A DNA stretch of 64,000 nt from assembly GCA_015660965.1 (NCBI GenBank), contig JACTVG010000003.1, positions 1 through 64,000 of the forward strand, read 5' to 3'. The notes under the pieces were generated by a model that had not been told where the DNA came from, did not search any database, and saw nothing but the letters and a program-made list of their open reading frames with translations. The stretch is from Methanoregulaceae archaeon (GTDB lineage: Archaea > Halobacteriota > Methanomicrobia > Methanomicrobiales > Methanospirillaceae). Position numbers and translations under genes: made by a program. Shown here in pieces: positions 1-29,372 of the stretch (the stretch's first letter is position 1; every line of letters begins with the position of its first letter).

Positions 1-309
1 GGCAGAAAACGATGTTGAATTACCCACATTTGGCGGGAAGCCACCAGCAGGATTAGTTAAAAAGAGAACACCGTTGATAGAAACATTATAACTGGTAACT
101 GCCCCATTATCCTGTCCTCCTTTCCAGGTTACCTGGATATTAGTTCCTATATGTGATGCAGTTGCTGCAACAACTCTCGTCTTCTGGATATTCCCCGCCA
201 TACCAAATACAAATGCAGCAATGACTGCTGCAAGGATCACAGTAATGGCGACCATCAGTATAACGCCGATTACAGGGGATACCGCTTCTTCATTTTTAGT
301 AAACGCCAT
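1..309 (-). CDS. Archaeal type IV pilin (N-terminal part; gene runs off the left edge)
   Basis: The reverse-strand translation starts at an ATG (307-309) and shows the class III signal of archaeal pilins: a short charged leader with the motif EEAVSPVIGVILMVAITVIL, followed by one hydrophobic helix (about residues 12-37). The helix drives membrane insertion and fibre assembly; the rest would be the globular head. The leader would be cut by the archaeal prepilin peptidase just before the hydrophobic stretch. About 103 codons are visible and the 3' end is outside the window. Archaeal pilin/flagellin-type N-termini (Pilin_N) are the family basis. No neighbouring assembly ATPase or platform gene is visible, so adhesion versus another surface role cannot be decided. 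Confidence 0.85.
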   Translation of the reverse strand, partial: MAFTKNEEAVSPVIGVILMVAITVILAAVIAAFVFGMAGNIQKTRVVAATASHIGTNIQVTWKGGQDNGAVTSYNVSINGVLFLTNPAGGFPPNVGNSTSFSA

Positions 310-426
310 AATTTCAAACACCTTTCATAGAATGCCCCCAAGCGGGGCAAGACAATATATATAGAGGGATTATGTTGTATGTAGATAAATATTTCGTTTT
401 GATTAAATGCATTTTTAAGCGTTAAA
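310..426. promoter_or_regulatory. Pilin upstream region, AT-rich
   Basis: This AT-rich stretch separates the pilin start from the decayed gene at 427. It contains runs such as TATATATAGAGG (355-366) that could be the pilin TATA element on the reverse strand. Nothing else is recognisable. Confidence 0.3.
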
Positions 427-712
427 ATGAATTTCATTCAAGAAAACTCCGAATAATCTTATCACCCCAAGTACTTTATCTTAGAACTTCGACCGACTGG
501 ATGGAATCTCTTGTTAATTGTGCGTTACAGGAACGGTACAAGCAAGTATAAGATCTCGGAGACCGGTTTGGGAAAATTGCCAACGCAAATTGAATGGAAA
601 CCATTTCAAGAGACAGGAGTGCCGGTGCACGGAAGATGAAGTGGAAGAGGGCAAACCGATGGAAGAAGAAGTCGGGGATGTTGATGGTACCCTGCTAGAA
701 GAGGAAGAATAG
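427..712 (+). pseudogene. Decayed small acidic-tailed protein gene
   Basis: No single frame is open, but two simple repairs restore a 95-codon gene from an ATG at 427. The first lesion is an in-frame TAA at 454-456. After it the frame reads as normal protein (YFILELRPTGWNLLLIVRY and onward) up to about 630. The second lesion is one surplus G in the GG before GAAGATGAA (about 631). Removing it joins this frame to a strongly acidic tail rich in Glu and Asp that ends at TAG 710-712. The product is not recognised. The alternative is that only the acidic frame from 518 is a small gene. I infer decay from the protein-like composition on both sides of the lesions. Confidence 0.4.
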
Positions 713-940
713 GTACCCGGATATGCTTTAAAACAAGGCGTCTTTTATCATCTATAAAAACCGCATATTCTTTATTATACCGCAATAGAAAAACCAGAAA
801 TGCCCGAATGCTCACGGTCACATACGGATCCTATGGTGCAAGCTTCACATTGATGGAAAGTAGACATGGGCAAAAATCGGATTGCAGTATTGCCACACTT
901 TCGGGTTGCTGATTCCTGATGAAAAGAGGTTATGTTCTGA
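713..940. other. Intergenic stretch, nothing recognised
   Basis: No convincing gene on either strand. A reverse ORF (606-821) overlaps the decayed gene and has no supporting features. Confidence 0.4.
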
Positions 941-1253
941 ATGGTCTCTAAAGGAACCCACAGGAAAATGAGTGAGGCACGGAAAAAGAGGTATGGGACA
1001 GATCCGAATACACCAGCGGGAAGAGAAAGTGCGTGCGTAATATTAAAAAATCACTACGAAACATTGAAAGAAGATCCAGAACATCTATCAACAAAGTTTA
1101 TTCAAAAACTTATTGGAATAGATCGTGCTGGGTTATAAACGAGTTAATATTGTTTATGCGTTACCACCAGAGGATGTTATGACCGTGTTTGGTTGTTCAA
1201 AACGAACAGCCATAGATTATATCGAAACGCTAAAATTTATAGTTCCATGGTAA
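941..1253 (+). pseudogene. Small helix-turn-helix protein, single-base frameshift
   Basis: The first frame starts at ATG 941, 10 bases after a GAGG, and begins with a basic segment (MVSKGTHRKMSEARKKRYG). It ends prematurely at 1138. Removing one G from the GGG at 1130-1132 continues the protein as GYKRVNIVYALPPEDVMTVF and then a helix-turn-helix-like stretch (GCSKRTAIDYIETLKFIV), ending at TAA 1251-1253. The repaired gene has 104 codons. It is likely a small DNA-binding protein of the mobile element to its right. A short second gene starting at the GTG in the second frame, overlapping the first, is possible but less natural. The frameshift may be real or a sequencing error. Confidence 0.6.
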
Positions 1254-1266
1254 ATGCATCCCATAA

Positions 1267-1308
1267 CAGTTAACAGCAAAATCCATCCCTCAACAAGTTA
1301 ACAGAACC
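1267..1308 (+). repeat. 42-bp repeat, copy A (inverted relative to copy B at 29074-29115)
   Basis: It contains two copies of AGTTAACAG exactly 28 bases apart (1268-1276 and 1296-1304). Its reverse complement matches 29074-29115 at 39 of 42 positions, including both internal motifs and their spacing. It lies directly downstream of the helix-turn-helix gene and upstream of the recombinase end. Function unknown; it could be a protein-binding site, an element end or a relic of a coding segment. Confidence 0.8.
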
Positions 1309-1414: not shown

Positions 1415-2395
1415 TCACACCAGTGAAAGCCCCGCACTCGTTTGCGATACGTTCAACCCGTTTGTTCTCGTTATTTCTCTGGGTATCTCTTTCTCTAATA
1501 GATGCACTGAACCCCAGTACTGCATGTAGTTTGCATAAACGTATTCTGGGAGAGGGTGTTTGTAGTGCGACCAATCAATGCCACTCACGCCGTGTGTTAA
1601 AATGTATGCCCGATTACTCTGACCCCATTCAATTATGTCACCGTGTTGTTCTACAAACTTTCTCAAGTCTGAAGGGGCGAATTGCAGGGGAACTCGACAC
1701 AGTAAAATTTTATGACGACTAATCCACGTTTGATATCCTCCTGTTTCAAACATCTTATCTCCGTCTTTTTTGCCTACTATTATGTGCGTCAGTAGTTGAA
1801 TGATATCGGGATGGATGGGAACGTAATGTTCCATTCGGATTTTATCCTGTCGTGGAATCACATGAAGAACAGGGGGGTTCGATTGCATTGCGTCCTTAAA
1901 TTGACTAGCAGCGAGTTGACTGATTGTAGATTCAATGCGTTGACCGGTATAAGCGCCGAACACGGTAATTCCAACGTAATTCACCATTGACTCGTAACTC
2001 AATCGTTGTTCAATGTAGGCATCGAATAGAGAGTCAAGAACGTGGGTAATATCCTCCTTGGTGACGATCCGTGAGGTAACTGTCTTCCGATCTTTTCTCG
2101 TTTTCGGCATTTCGAGGAAGAGCGCGAAATTTTGGTACCGTGTGTCAAAATGCAACTTCGATAGGTACTTGAGGAAGGATTTCGCGAAGTTCAAGAATTT
2201 ACCCCACGAATCGCGACTTGAATAATGAGTCATAACGTAATCATAAAATGTGTTCATAGTGGTTTGACTTTTTGCGCCGCGCGATGTATTCCAAAATATG
2301 TCAGAAGATTTAGTCATCCAATGGAGTGATTTTTTGGAGATCTCTCGACAACCCCTTTCTGTATAACTATCTATTTCGTTCTTTGAAAACTGCAA
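1415..2395 (-). CDS. Tyrosine recombinase / integrase
   Basis: The 326-residue protein has an N-terminal helical DNA-binding region (about 1-115) and a catalytic half. Visible catalytic elements are the first Arg in AYTGQRIES (about residue 153), a Lys in the following hairpin region, the box II His in ILTHGVSGIDWSHYKHP, and a candidate nucleophile Tyr in the cluster PEYVYANYMQYWG. The pattern is that of archaeal chromosomal and plasmid/virus integrases of the tyrosine recombinase family. The start lies about 90 bases from a tRNA-Val 3' fragment at 2486-2527, as expected for an integrase next to its attachment site. It would catalyse site-specific integration or excision. Whether it is active is unknown. 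Confidence 0.85.
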   Translation of the reverse strand: MQFSKNEIDSYTERGCREISKKSLHWMTKSSDIFWNTSRGAKSQTTMNTFYDYVMTHYSSRDSWGKFLNFAKSFLKYLSKLHFDTRYQNFALFLEMPKTRKDRKTVTSRIVTKEDITHVLDSLFDAYIEQRLSYESMVNYVGITVFGAYTGQRIESTISQLAASQFKDAMQSNPPVLHVIPRQDKIRMEHYVPIHPDIIQLLTHIIVGKKDGDKMFETGGYQTWISRHKILLCRVPLQFAPSDLRKFVEQHGDIIEWGQSNRAYILTHGVSGIDWSHYKHPLPEYVYANYMQYWGSVHLLEKEIPREITRTNGLNVSQTSAGLSLV

Positions 2396-2485
2396 AATAA
2401 GGTCGGTTAAGTTTGATCCATTATCACAACCATTATGGTTAGTGATGGAATGAGCCTCATGGACTATTTGTCTAAGACTTCGAGG

Positions 2486-2527
2486 TTCACACGGCGAAGA
2501 TCTCGTGTTCGAATCACGACGAGCCCA
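2486..2527 (+). other. 3' fragment of tRNA-Val(CAC): candidate attachment site
   Basis: From the anticodon loop onward the sequence follows a tRNA-Val: loop TTCACAC with anticodon CAC (2488-2490), 3' anticodon-stem strand GGCGA, variable loop AGATC, and a perfect T arm (TCGTG, loop TTCGAAT, CACGA; 2503-2519). It ends with acceptor strand CGAGCCC and discriminator A. The 5' half has no GGGCTCG acceptor strand, although 2447-2485 looks vaguely like a degenerate D arm. A 3' tRNA fragment beside an integrase gene is the usual footprint of integration into a tRNA gene. On this reading the element extends leftwards and the intact tRNA would lie left of the window. Confidence 0.75.
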
Positions 2528-2640
2528 TGACGTTTTTGGTTGGTCCCTTATACGAATTTTACTATGTTTTATTTTCGCGATTCGCGAGCCTCGCTTTAAT
2601 ACTCCAAAATGTAGAGAATGAGAATGTTCCTAATATTCAT

Positions 2641-2826
2641 TTAAAAGGCATAAAATAAAGACACAAGAATCAAACCAACAATACAAACGAAAAGGTAAGG
2701 CAAATAGTCTAATCCTAAATAAATTACTGACAATATTTCAATTAGTATCGCTATCCCAATTCCGATTAAGAGTACAGCTCCTATTGCATGTTTAAAGATT
2801 GAAATGTCTCTATGAACATCGTTCAT
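2641..2826 (-). CDS. Small two-helix membrane protein
   Basis: A 61-residue protein with two strongly hydrophobic segments (about residues 14-36 and 41-61) and a short polar N-terminus (MNDVHRDISIFKH). The family is not recognised. It stands alone between the tRNA fragment and the repeat protein gene. The regular two-helix pattern supports a real gene, but there is no functional clue. Confidence 0.5.
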   Translation of the reverse strand: MNDVHRDISIFKHAIGAVLLIGIGIAILIEILSVIYLGLDYLPYLFVCIVGLILVSLFYAF

Positions 2827-3121: not shown

Positions 3122-3337
3122 TTAGGCGTTCTTCATCTTCGCCTTTGCGACGTAACCGTCCTTTCCAATATAATACATATAGCCGGCTTCTTTTGCTATC
3201 TTCTCTGAGCCGACTTTCTTCTTCCTGCCACCTGGGTTTGACTTCATGGGTGCTGCCCAGACGTAGCCATCCTTTCCAACAAAGTATAGATAGCCTTTCT
3301 CACGGCTGATCTTTTCCTTTCCAACTTTCTGTCCCAT
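3122..3337 (-). CDS. Small protein with two tandem KDGYV repeats
   Basis: The 71-residue protein consists almost entirely of two copies of a ~30-residue unit: KVGKEKISREKGYLYFVGKD and KVGSEKIAKEAGYMYYIGKD, each followed by GYV and a basic Ala/Met/Lys tail, joined by a Gly/Arg/Lys linker. It is very basic and rich in aromatic residues, so a nucleic-acid- or surface-binding role is conceivable, but none is established from the sequence. On the reverse strand a good ribosome binding site (GAGGTG) lies 5 bases before the ATG. That site directly abuts a long perfect palindrome (3347-3371), which suggests translational or transcriptional control. Confidence 0.8.
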   Translation of the reverse strand: MGQKVGKEKISREKGYLYFVGKDGYVWAAPMKSNPGGRKKKVGSEKIAKEAGYMYYIGKDGYVAKAKMKNA

Positions 3338-3371: not shown

Positions 3372-4020
3372 TAAAGAGTTGTTCCGTCTGAAACTATAAA
3401 AGGTTTCTCGTCGGTAGCCGTCGTAAGGTTCAATTTAGACAGAATAAAATGGACATTTTTGACAAATGACCGCACAAAACGTGCCATTTCAAAATCGATT
3501 AAAATTGCCCAAAATCTCTTTTAGAGATTAAATCATACTTTTCATTATACTTTAAACAAACACTTTTTACTGGAAATTCAATCACCGCGCTTTTTACAAC
3601 CATTTTAATATGAATGTTATCGTGGTATAGAGGATACAATTCAGAAACAAATTTTTTTCTTATAATTAGTGATTGATTTTTGAATTTGATGGTAATAAAT
3701 CTGCTACTATAGGTGAGGTTTCAATAAGGGGTGATATCCATTGGGTCGCTAGTGGTGATCCAGATATTGATTGACCTGAAAATAATATTGGATATTCACT
3801 CAGTAATGCAAAAAAATTAAAATTAAAGATATAAAAGTTTTATCAAACTTCACAAATTGTTACTTATTGTTAAACTTCAATAAGCTTTCGTCGATGACCT
3901 TAATTGATATTATTCGTACGTTTCTGATAAATTATTTTACTCAATTGATTGAAAGGTTTAAGCAAGTAAGTTTGAACCGGATATTTATCGGGTTTCAAAA
4001 CCTAGTATAGTGGGATTTCT
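3372..4020. other. Long AT-rich intergenic region; possible decayed ORF at 3673-3834
   Basis: No clear gene. On the + strand, 3673-3774 encodes a protein-like 33-residue stretch (GNKSATIGEVSIRGDIHWV within it). It stops at TGA and continues in the same frame with plausible protein to TAA at 3834. No good start codon is visible. No Cys-rich short precursor peptide for the downstream radical SAM enzyme was found here on either strand. Confidence 0.3.
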
Positions 4021-5142
4021 CTGTACTATCACCTTATTCTCACAGATAACTGTAACCTCTGTTGTTCCTACTGCAGGGCGAAGTCGTTTGAAGATAATAT
4101 TGTTGCCAAAGGATGTAATCTTGAAATTGATGAGAATTTACCTTTAGAATTGGAGTATGATCTGGATACTCTCTATAGTTTTTTGAGACTTGATCCATAT
4201 TCGACAGTCACATTTTATGGTGGTGAACCACTTCTAAAGAGAGATATTATTCGTAAGATAATGGACGAAGCGCCAGCACAACGGTATATGCTTCAGACTA
4301 ATGGCCTATTGCTCGACCATCTCGAACCGGAATATATTAATCGATTTGCTACGATCCTAGTTTCGTTAGATGGACGGGAGGCACTTACTGATAATCATCG
4401 GGGGCATGGAACTTACCGAAAAGTGATGGAAAATGTTCGAAAGACAGTCCGTAATGGATTTTCTGGAGAAATTATCGCCAGAATGACTGTTACTGAAAGT
4501 TCAGACATCTTTGATGCTGTCACATATCTTTCCAACAATCCTGATTATTCATTCTCATCCATTCACTGGCAGTTAGATGCCAATTTTTCTAATGATTTTT
4601 CCCAACGAGCGTTTGCGTCATGGGTAACTGAAAAATATAACATTGGAATCCGTTCACTCATTCAACATTGGGTGGATATAATGCACAAAGAAAGTCGAGT
4701 TCCCCGATGGTACCCATTTCTTGATACTATGGAGGACTTGTTACTTAAGCGGACAAGCCTTTTACGTTGCGGATCAGGATACGCCAATTATAGTATCATG
4801 ACTGATGGAAACATCGCTCCTTGTCCAATTATGATTGGTATGAAGGATTACTACCTCGGGCACATCCAATCTACCAGTCCATACGATCTTGCCTCAATTA
4901 GTATAGGAGCAGAGTGTGCCGGGTGCAAAATTCTTAATTTCTGTGGAGGTAGGTGCCTTTATGCTAATATAATTCAGCCATGGAATTTGAAGGAGAGAAG
5001 ACTTGTTTGCAGTACTATAGAGAACTTATACATTTCCCTCACTAACGCAATCCCAGAAATAAGATCTCTTCTTGATGAAGGTAAAATAACATTGAATGAT
5101 TTTGCTCATGAAAAGTTCAACGGTTGCGAGATTATTCCATGA
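4021..5142 (+). CDS. Radical SAM/SPASM protein, putative peptide-modifying enzyme (Mhun_1560-like)
   Basis: The protein begins with YYHLILTDNCNLCCSYCR, containing the CxxxCxxC cluster that binds the radical SAM [4Fe-4S] centre. It then shows TFYGGEP (SAM-binding GGE motif) and LVSLDG. The C-terminus is a SPASM-type region with Cys in RCGSGYANY, APCPIMIG, CAGC and FCGGRC, which would hold auxiliary clusters. The ending KFNGCEIIP is typical of the methanogen 'putative peptide-modifying radical SAM, Mhun_1560' group as I recall it. An in-frame TAG lies at 4003-4005 and no ATG or GTG precedes the Cys motif. The expected Met position is occupied by CTG (4021), so the start is non-canonical or mutated. 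The next alternative start (TTG at 4150) would delete the cluster. No substrate peptide is visible nearby. Confidence 0.8.
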   Translation: MYYHLILTDNCNLCCSYCRAKSFEDNIVAKGCNLEIDENLPLELEYDLDTLYSFLRLDPYSTVTFYGGEPLLKRDIIRKIMDEAPAQRYMLQTNGLLLDHLEPEYINRFATILVSLDGREALTDNHRGHGTYRKVMENVRKTVRNGFSGEIIARMTVTESSDIFDAVTYLSNNPDYSFSSIHWQLDANFSNDFSQRAFASWVTEKYNIGIRSLIQHWVDIMHKESRVPRWYPFLDTMEDLLLKRTSLLRCGSGYANYSIMTDGNIAPCPIMIGMKDYYLGHIQSTSPYDLASISIGAECAGCKILNFCGGRCLYANIIQPWNLKERRLVCSTIENLYISLTNAIPEIRSLLDEGKITLNDFAHEKFNGCEIIP

Positions 5143-5217
5143 CGAAAAGTGGGTATATTCCCATGGAGATGTATTTATACCTAGCGGATGGATATATATG
5201 CGCAGCGTCAAACCTGC

Positions 5218-5397
5218 ATGAGTAAAACAATGGAAAGAAAAGGTTTTGGCGGTCCGAGAAACTTCGGCCCCCGTGAAATGACTAAGACAGTCTGTTCAGA
5301 CTGCGGTAAAGAGTGTGAAGTCCCCTTCAAACCCACAGAGGGAAGACCAGTTTATTGTCGGGATTGCCTTCCGAAACACCGGAAACCCCGATTCTAA
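5218..5397 (+). CDS. CxxC-x17-CxxC zinc-ribbon protein
   Basis: A short basic protein whose core is KTVCSDCGKECEVPFKP, then about ten residues, then YCRDC: two CxxC pairs exactly 17 residues apart. This spacing defines the small CxxC-x17-CxxC domain found in bacteria and archaea, presumably a zinc or iron site. The N-terminus is rich in Gly, Arg and Phe. A TATA-like TATTTATACC (5171-5180) predicts transcription starting near 5202, so the ATG at 5188 is upstream of it. The ATG at 5218 or the one at 5230 is the more likely start. It follows the radical SAM gene by 75 bases on the same strand, but its own promoter argues against a single operon. Confidence 0.7.
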   Translation: MSKTMERKGFGGPRNFGPREMTKTVCSDCGKECEVPFKPTEGRPVYCRDCLPKHRKPRF

Positions 5398-28871: not shown

Positions 28872-29372
28872 GGGATCTCCGCGTGAATAGTTATCTGACT
28901 AGTCGTCGTGTACAGGTTCACTATACCAGCGTAACAATTGTAGGTATATACACTCTCCGGTGCTGGGCAGGATCCGGACTGGGTGCACAACCTCCAGCCA
29001 TTGAATCTGCAGGGCACCACTTATATGCCGAAAGAAATCTTCCATGTGTTACTATTAAATCTGTGTGGTTTTGGGTTCTGTTAACTTGTTGTGGAATGGA
29101 TTTTACTGTTAACTGGCGTGGGACAATGGAACTAAATAGGTTCTGTTGCATCTACGGTTGATGATCGAAAAGGCAATGGATATTGAATTGTGGTTGGTGG
29201 GGCGCAGATCGAAATGTGAGGATTTAATTTTGATATTGCTCAATGCTTCCCCAATAAGATGTGTTTTTTACAATTCTTTCCATAATATTCTCATCAAGAT
29301 TATTGTCATTATTCCAGGAATCCTGCTATTCCGGCAATTCAACCTAGTTCCCACGGGTATTGAAAATGCCCG
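28872..29372. other. kdp upstream region with the second copy of the 42-bp repeat
   Basis: The kdp promoter should lie here; a TATA-like segment is not certain. The 42-bp repeat lies at 29074-29115. A 76-residue reverse ORF (28921-29151) overlaps it but has no recognisable features. No other gene seen. Confidence 0.5.
29074..29115 (-). repeat. 42-bp repeat, copy B (inverted relative to 1267-1308)
   Basis: It contains CTGTTAACT twice, 28 bases apart (29078-29086 and 29106-29114), and matches the reverse complement of 1267-1308 at 39 of 42 positions. A short match (ATGGAACT) beyond the right end also follows in both copies, after gaps of different length. Function unknown. Confidence 0.8.

What the first reader, a model, noticed from the sequence alone, without database searches (positions are those of the whole stretch)
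2486..2527. tRNA-Val 3' fragment next to the integrase marks an element boundary
The fragment begins in the anticodon loop and ends with a perfect acceptor 3' strand, while its 5' half is degenerate. This is the expected scar at the distal end of an element integrated into a tRNA gene. The orientation predicts that the element extends left and that an intact tRNA-Val(CAC) lies beyond position 1.
Basis: partly seen in the sequence, partly recalled or inferred. Interest (0 to 1): 0.5.

Follow-up and report, generated by a model that had tools for sequence, protein, structure and literature searches.

The report
Split-integrase element scar at tRNA-Val
The partial tRNA gene is one end of a small, decayed mobile element in a methane-producing archaeon; the element's integrase gene carries the target tRNA sequence inside itself and was cut in two when the element inserted, a known archaeal arrangement seen here with an unusual recombinase.

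Summary
Window 2486-2528 is identical (43 bp) to the 3' half, from the first anticodon-loop base, of an intact tRNA-Val(CAC) on contig C5. C5 shares 112 identical bases with the window's left end, so intact gene and copy lie about 3.3 kb apart as assembled. In relatives, tRNA-Val is followed by the genes that lie right of the copy here: the empty site. The copy is not just beside the integrase but inside its reading frame; a tail of the N-terminal half (intN) reads into the intact tRNA in the same frame. This is an integrase gene split by integration ("suicidal", SSV-type). In six of six Methanomicrobiales loci with both ends on one stretch, intN and intC share one frame across the tRNA. The element here is probably dead: intN lacks its N-terminal domain and an inverted integrase relic lies beside it. 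The architecture is known. Less ordinary: the window's catalytic half does not match PF16795, the Pfam family given for suicidal integrases, yet its family shares the intN domain with PF16795 integrases of the same order; and intN occurs with tRNAs in either orientation.

The parts
2486..2528 (+). distal attachment site: exact copy of the 3' half of tRNA-Val(CAC), anticodon loop to acceptor end
   Evidence: 43 bp identical to G000:C5:883-959(-); only two places in the genome within 3 mismatches
2456..2485 (+). diverged tRNA-like 5' half, carried by the element
   Evidence: 2456-2482 scores as high as 0.08% of random 40-mers
1415..2629 (-). intC: catalytic half of a tyrosine recombinase (1415-2395) whose open frame runs on through the antisense tRNA copy
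   Evidence: frame without stop through WARRDSNTRSSPCEP; open frame of 404 aa; PHROG 216 integrase, E 5e-4 for this protein; fold matches to tyrosine recombinases
1..321 (-). first part of an archaellin/type IV pilin gene inside the insert; completed on contig C5
   Evidence: TIGR02537 E 2.4e-13; continuous joined frame
941..1138 (+). small ORF inside the insert, no PHROG match
2641..2826 (-). first conserved ORF of the old right flank (61 aa)
   Evidence: homologue 187 bp downstream of intact tRNA-Val in G001
3122..3337 (-). conserved right-flank ORF (71 aa)
   Evidence: homologue 0.45 kb (G011) and 0.63 kb (G032) downstream of intact tRNA-Val
4081..5142 (+). TIGR04084 radical SAM gene, conserved right flank
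   Evidence: TIGR04084 E 3e-82; downstream of tRNA-Val in 9 of 13 relatives read
5188..5397 (+). small CxxC-x17-CxxC protein, conserved right flank
   Evidence: follows the radical SAM gene in G005, G011, G025 and G032; TIGR04272 E 5e-20

Best explanation
2486-2528 is the distal attachment site of a decayed integrative element that entered the 3' half of tRNA-Val(CAC). The element's integrase gene carried the attachment site, a tRNA 3' half in antisense, within itself. Recombination at or near the anticodon loop rebuilt the tRNA on the left and cut the gene in two: a tail of intN now reads into the intact tRNA on contig C5, and intC, entered through the copy, is at window 2395-1415. Shown: the repeat, the overlap that joins the contigs, the empty site in relatives, the open frame through the copy, the same frame at both ends here, and the same arrangement with both ends in six related loci. 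Inferred: the recombination event and its exchange points, that the whole protein was active, and that this copy is dead because intN lacks its N-terminal domain, with an inverted integrase relic in its place.
For: Two copies of the core and no third. Contig join by a 112-bp exact overlap and a continuous pilin frame. Of 20 relatives with a core match I read the flanks of 13; all 13 have HtpX and tRNA-Gly on the left, and 9 of 13 have the TIGR04084 gene on the right within the stretch read. int frame open through the copy and an intN tail in the same frame entering the intact tRNA. In six of six loci with both ends (L132, L134, L136, L153, L078, L117), intN and intC use the same frame across the antisense tRNA, with exact repeats of 40-45 bp (intC frames). 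Over the order, 18 of 30 intN places end in an antisense tRNA.
Against: The join rests on a draft assembly of 170 contigs. The intN tail here is short (49 codons before the tRNA); it lacks the conserved domain, and neither the intN profile at E<=1 on the fetched loci nor at 1e-5 on the genome reports it, so its identity rests on frame, position and a coiled-coil-like resemblance judged by eye. An opposite-facing integrase relic sits in the same place. 7 of 30 intN places show no tRNA at the frame end and 4 of 30 face the tRNA the other way. Upstream of 17 intC starts only 7 have the antisense T-arm motif (4% of random stretches do).
Confidence: 0.9

Rival explanations
1. Ordinary unsplit integrase (pNOB8-like or bacterial-like) that merely sits beside its attachment site; the open frame through the copy is accidental.
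For: A TTG start exists at 2395, after the copy. Some relatives from bog and fen metagenomes have the integrase just downstream of a tRNA in the sense direction (L124, L126, L138, L149).
Against: Six of six loci with both ends have an intN frame at the far end in the matching frame; the shared intN domain is recovered at 30 places in the order; the window frame continues in phase beside the intact tRNA.
Confidence: 0.06
2. The boundary is right but the element is larger: the 112-bp overlap is a repeat and sequence is missing between the two contigs.
For: Contigs end exactly in the overlap; related elements with both ends span about 5.4 to 14.6 kb between int and tRNA.
Against: No third exact copy of the 112 bp in the genome (the only other match is 79% identical, C42); the joined pilin frame is complete.
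Confidence: 0.2
3. A tRNA pseudogene from plain duplication, unrelated to integration.
For: The 5' half still resembles a tRNA; in G050 the copy is nearly full length.
Against: Identity is perfect on one side of the anticodon loop and broken on the other; an integrase frame runs through it; the same layout recurs at Val, Asp and Glu tRNAs.
Confidence: 0.02

Closest known systems
Suicidal (SSV-type, type I) integrases of SSV1, pTN3 and pT26-2 (review PMC8371274: sections 17, 30, 31 and part 1 of section 9 read; otherwise outline and passages)
   Same: Attachment site inside the integrase gene; gene split into int(N) and int(C) on integration; att of 40-50 bp in a tRNA 3' half reaching the anticodon loop; in the review tRNA-Val(CAC) is named among the more often used targets in Thermococcales (passage).
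   Different: The review gives PF16795 as their domain and lists Sulfolobales, Desulfurococcales, Thermococcales, Archaeoglobales and Methanosarcinales as host orders in its table. The window protein has no PF16795 match at E<=10, and the host is of the Methanomicrobiales.
PF16795 integrases in Methanomicrobiales (G059, G037, G127; 18 of 232 genomes of the order)
   Same: Same intN domain nearby; in G059 and G037 intN and intC read the antisense tRNA in the same frame.
   Different: Catalytic half of another PHROG (5127, 8 of 8) than the window family (216, 5 of 5); profile comparison weak (probability 14%, E 0.0019). In G127 intN and intC lie side by side in different frames.
pNOB8-type (type II) integrases
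   Same: Tyrosine recombinases that use tRNA 3' ends.
   Different: Their gene stays whole after integration (review passage); here it does not.

Membership tests
suicidal integrase architecture | attachment site lies in the reading frame of the integrase | tested here: met
   open frame through the antisense tRNA copy, 404 aa
suicidal integrase architecture | int(N) and int(C) at opposite ends, in one frame | tested here: met
   6 of 6 complete related loci; in the window element the intN side is only a tail without its conserved domain
suicidal integrase architecture | tRNA gene rebuilt, direct repeat of about 40-50 bp | tested here: met
   43 bp; intact tRNA-Val(CAC) called by ARAGORN
suicidal integrase architecture | whole protein integrates and excises the element | not testable with these tools
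   needs an assay
SSV / pTN3 / pT26-2 protein families | PF16795 (Phage_integr_3) catalytic domain | tested here: not met
   no match for the window protein; 2 of 5 family members match PF16795 weakly (best E 0.003) and 2 of 5 match PF00589 (best E 3.1e-4)
SSV / pTN3 / pT26-2 protein families | catalytic pattern R...KxxR...Y | tested here: inconclusive
   R153, K185, R245 and Y290 invariant in 5 sequences, but the residue three before R245 varies (S, S, G, K, R)
pNOB8-type (unsplit) integrase | integrase gene remains whole after integration | tested here: not met
   intC here and intN tail on the other side
tyrosine recombinase superfamily | recombinase fold | tested here: met
   AlphaFold model pLDDT 77, pTM 0.59; the first 23 Foldseek rows are Cre, Tn1549, lambda, Flp and other integrases, but no E below 1e-3 and TM-scores only 0.23-0.39 by query

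The most novel reading that the evidence does not exclude
A second catalytic lineage of tyrosine recombinase, outside the PF16795 group, carries the self-disrupting architecture in Methanomicrobiales and shares its N-terminal module (intN plus att) with PF16795 integrases of the same order. The module would then have been swapped between catalytic cores, or the architecture arose twice, against the single origin proposed in the 2021 review. The att site inside this family of genes can face either way relative to the tRNA.
Probability: 0.35. Interest if true: 0.6.

Novelty: new variant of a known kind. Interest (0 to 1): 0.4.

Why it matters
It explains tRNA fragments beside integrases in these methanogens as halves of a self-cut gene, gives element ends to the base, and offers families in culturable mesophilic methanogens (Methanoculleus sediminis has a 14.6-kb example) in which to test how self-disrupting integrases persist and change target. 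If two catalytic groups do share one N-terminal module, exchange at the internal att site, which the review proposes between related elements, would reach across recombinase groups.

Tried and rejected
ARAGORN with lowered thresholds reported 205 and 120 tRNAs in the 64 kb, among them the fragment joined to distant 5' halves as intron-bearing genes; taken as noise. Pfam and NCBIfam at E<=1 and 0.1 and a PDB sequence search gave nothing for the integrase. Two scans of viral contigs found no relative, so no free form was found there. I first took the inverted int1 relic on C5 as evidence against a split gene; the antisense intN tail and the six complete loci changed that. In the gaps downstream of tRNA-Val in eight relatives (G001-G005, G011, G025, G032) no second att copy was found at E<=0.1, so the long gaps in G005 (about 11.5 kb to the 3122-3337 homologue) and G025 (about 2.2 kb) give no sign of the same kind of insertion.

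Six of the 20 relatives with a core match (G041, G045, G046, G048, G051, G058) were not read, and G060 was read only around its fragment.

Full report
Setting. The window is the start of contig C70 of a 2,428,622-base draft genome in 170 contigs. G026, of the same family, lies on a contig of the same length (62,017 bases) and with the same int stretch as the record titled Methanoregulaceae archaeon UXB-2016, and G050, of the same order, likewise on a 944,906-base contig of Methanoculleus sediminis S3Fa. The host is therefore most likely one of the Methanoregulaceae, order Methanomicrobiales (inference).

The observation. 2486-2528 is identical to the 3' half of the intact tRNA-Val(CAC) at C5:883-959(-), from the first anticodon-loop base. 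The 42-mer occurs at these two places only within 3 mismatches. The 5' half of the copy is diverged but tRNA-like. In G050 the matching copy is near full length: ARAGORN calls a 71-base tRNA-Val(cac) there, although the genome also has a 76-base copy 91% identical to ours about 14.7 kb away.

The join. C5 and the window begin with the same 112 bases in opposite direction; no other exact copy exists in the genome, only a 79% identical paralogue on C42. The joined frame gives one complete pilin gene, and the distance from the end of the intact core to the end of the copy is 3,299 bp. This rests on a draft assembly.

The empty site. Of 61 genomes (own plus 60 relatives), 21 have the core within 3 mismatches. 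Of the 20 relatives among them I read the flanks of 13 intact genes; all 13 have tRNA-Gly and HtpX on the left. On the right, 9 of 13 have the TIGR04084 radical SAM gene within the stretch read; the contigs of G001 and G006 end before it could appear, and G002 and G004 do not have it there (in G004 it is about 74 kb away). In G011 and G032 the homologue of window ORF 3122-3337 begins 0.45 and 0.63 kb after tRNA-Val, and in G001 the homologue of ORF 2641-2826 begins 187 bp after it. So what lies right of the copy is the old downstream flank of tRNA-Val. The integrase has no match at E<=0.001 in G011, G032 or G025, and in G001 only matches to its last 50 residues.

The split integrase. ORF 1415-2395(-) is a tyrosine recombinase by PHROG 216 (E 5e-4 for the window protein; 5 of 5 members of its family, best 2e-11) and by fold (23 leading rows are tyrosine recombinases, though no E is below 1e-3 and TM-scores are low). 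Its frame stays open through the copy, which it reads antisense as WARRDSNTRSSPCEP. On C5, antisense to the intact tRNA, a frame open for 49 codons before the tRNA reads into it in the same phase, as ...YEKRIIDLERRIGTIEERG...WARRDSNTRSSPCEG. The likeness of this tail to the coiled-coil tails of other intN frames is my judgement by eye; the intN profile does not report it.

Relatives. Six loci have both ends in one stretch (L132, L134, L136, L153, L078, L117). In six of six an intN frame of 98-137 codons enters the intact tRNA antisense in the frame that intC uses at the other end, and the exact repeat is 42, 45, 44, 42, 44 and at least 40 bp (intC frames). Targets are tRNA-Val(TAC) twice, Val(CAC), Asp(GTC) and Glu(CTC) twice. 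The frame differs between elements (for example WAQPDSN, GPVRIRTG, RPGRNSNP, CCYGDSNP), which fits the review's remark that the att translation varies (PMC8371274 section 31). The intN frames share a domain, PKxGYxYPxIRFP...LIGK...AFLIV. In 232 genomes of the order, its profile finds 30 places in 25 genomes. Of the 30, 18 end inside an antisense tRNA called by ARAGORN (L173 and L186 at one tRNA; six of the 18 are the loci above), 4 run into a tRNA in sense, 1 ends in an antisense T-arm without a tRNA call, and 7 show neither.

State of this element. The intN domain is missing; beside the tail lies an opposite-facing relic, 66% identical to residues 2-123 of the window integrase, with one stop. 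Two small ORFs of the insert had no PHROG match; no others were scanned besides pilin and integrase. It is most likely immobile unless a related integrase acts in trans, as the review reports for SSV2 and TKV4 (section 30).

Known and not known. Self-splitting integrases are known. The review names PF16795 as their domain and proposes a single origin (section 9). The window protein does not match PF16795 at E<=10, so I do not file it in those protein families; two of its five family members match PF16795 weakly (best 0.003) and two match PF00589 (3.1e-4). PF16795 integrases occur in 18 of 232 genomes of this order and not in the window's genome. Six of those 18 also have intN; in three (G059, G037, G127) the two are within 6 kb on one contig. 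In G059 and G037 they share the tRNA frame; in G127 they are side by side in different frames. L190 (G145) seems to hold intN-like sequence, an antisense tRNA peptide and the catalytic half in one 352-codon frame, by eye. So one N-terminal module serves two catalytic groups that hardly align. The review also has families without any Pfam domain (fam30-08, STSV/SMV), to which the window family might belong; I could not check. Searches: no held paper from 2019 on has both 'suicidal integrase' and 'Methanomicrobi' (listing ordered by number of terms); six hold any of five names for such integrases; six hold four of six terms on Methanoculleus, Methanoregula, integrase, tRNA, provirus, integrated plasmid. 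I saw listings only, apart from PMC8371274 and passages of PMC6972569.

Noticed in passing
L003 (G000:C5) 398-760, minus strand: A second integrase relic, 66% identical to residues 2-123 of the window integrase and facing away from tRNA-Val, head to head with the intN tail. Suggests layered insertions or an inversion.
   Followed up: partly
window about 1415-1565; L032-L035, L037-L040: The last 50 or so codons of the integrase recur at 8 other places (63-80% identical) in this genome (C4) and in G001, G002, G005 and G006, in frames broken by stops, with shared sequence upstream that is not integrase: a dispersed repeat.
   Followed up: partly
window 1259-1308 and 29074-29123; 1315-1368 and L077 14369-14421: Short repeats (88% over 50 bp; 82% over 55 bp) between the insert and other places of the genome.
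   Followed up: no
L164 / L077 14328-14816 (G000:C4): In the same genome an intN frame runs in the sense direction through a complete tRNA-Val(GAC); three more sense cases in L174, L175, L180. How a sense att with a whole tRNA works is unexplained.
   Followed up: partly
L003 about 840-880; L117 about 3740-3780: A perfect inverted repeat just after the intact tRNA 3' end in both G000 and M. sediminis, with different sequence: perhaps a terminator or an integrase arm site (seen by eye).
   Followed up: no
L072 3604-3661 (G060:C3): A 57-base, 98% identical piece of tRNA-Val without a complete tRNA gene: probably another such scar.
   Followed up: partly
L128 9166-12690: Bog metagenome contig with intN, sense tRNA-Val piece, intC and a second intN with a sense piece about 3.1 kb on: looks like a short element next to a remnant of another.
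   Followed up: partly
G000:C42 59747-59968: Second copy of the pilin gene, 84% identical over 74 residues, with a stop.
   Followed up: no
L117 4709-16957: The M. sediminis element carries a 1,276-aa and a 411-aa protein without a confident family, and a protein matching phrog_20667 (E 1.7e-73) that resembles AbiJ_NTD4 below the Pfam cut-off (E 6.7e-7).
   Followed up: no
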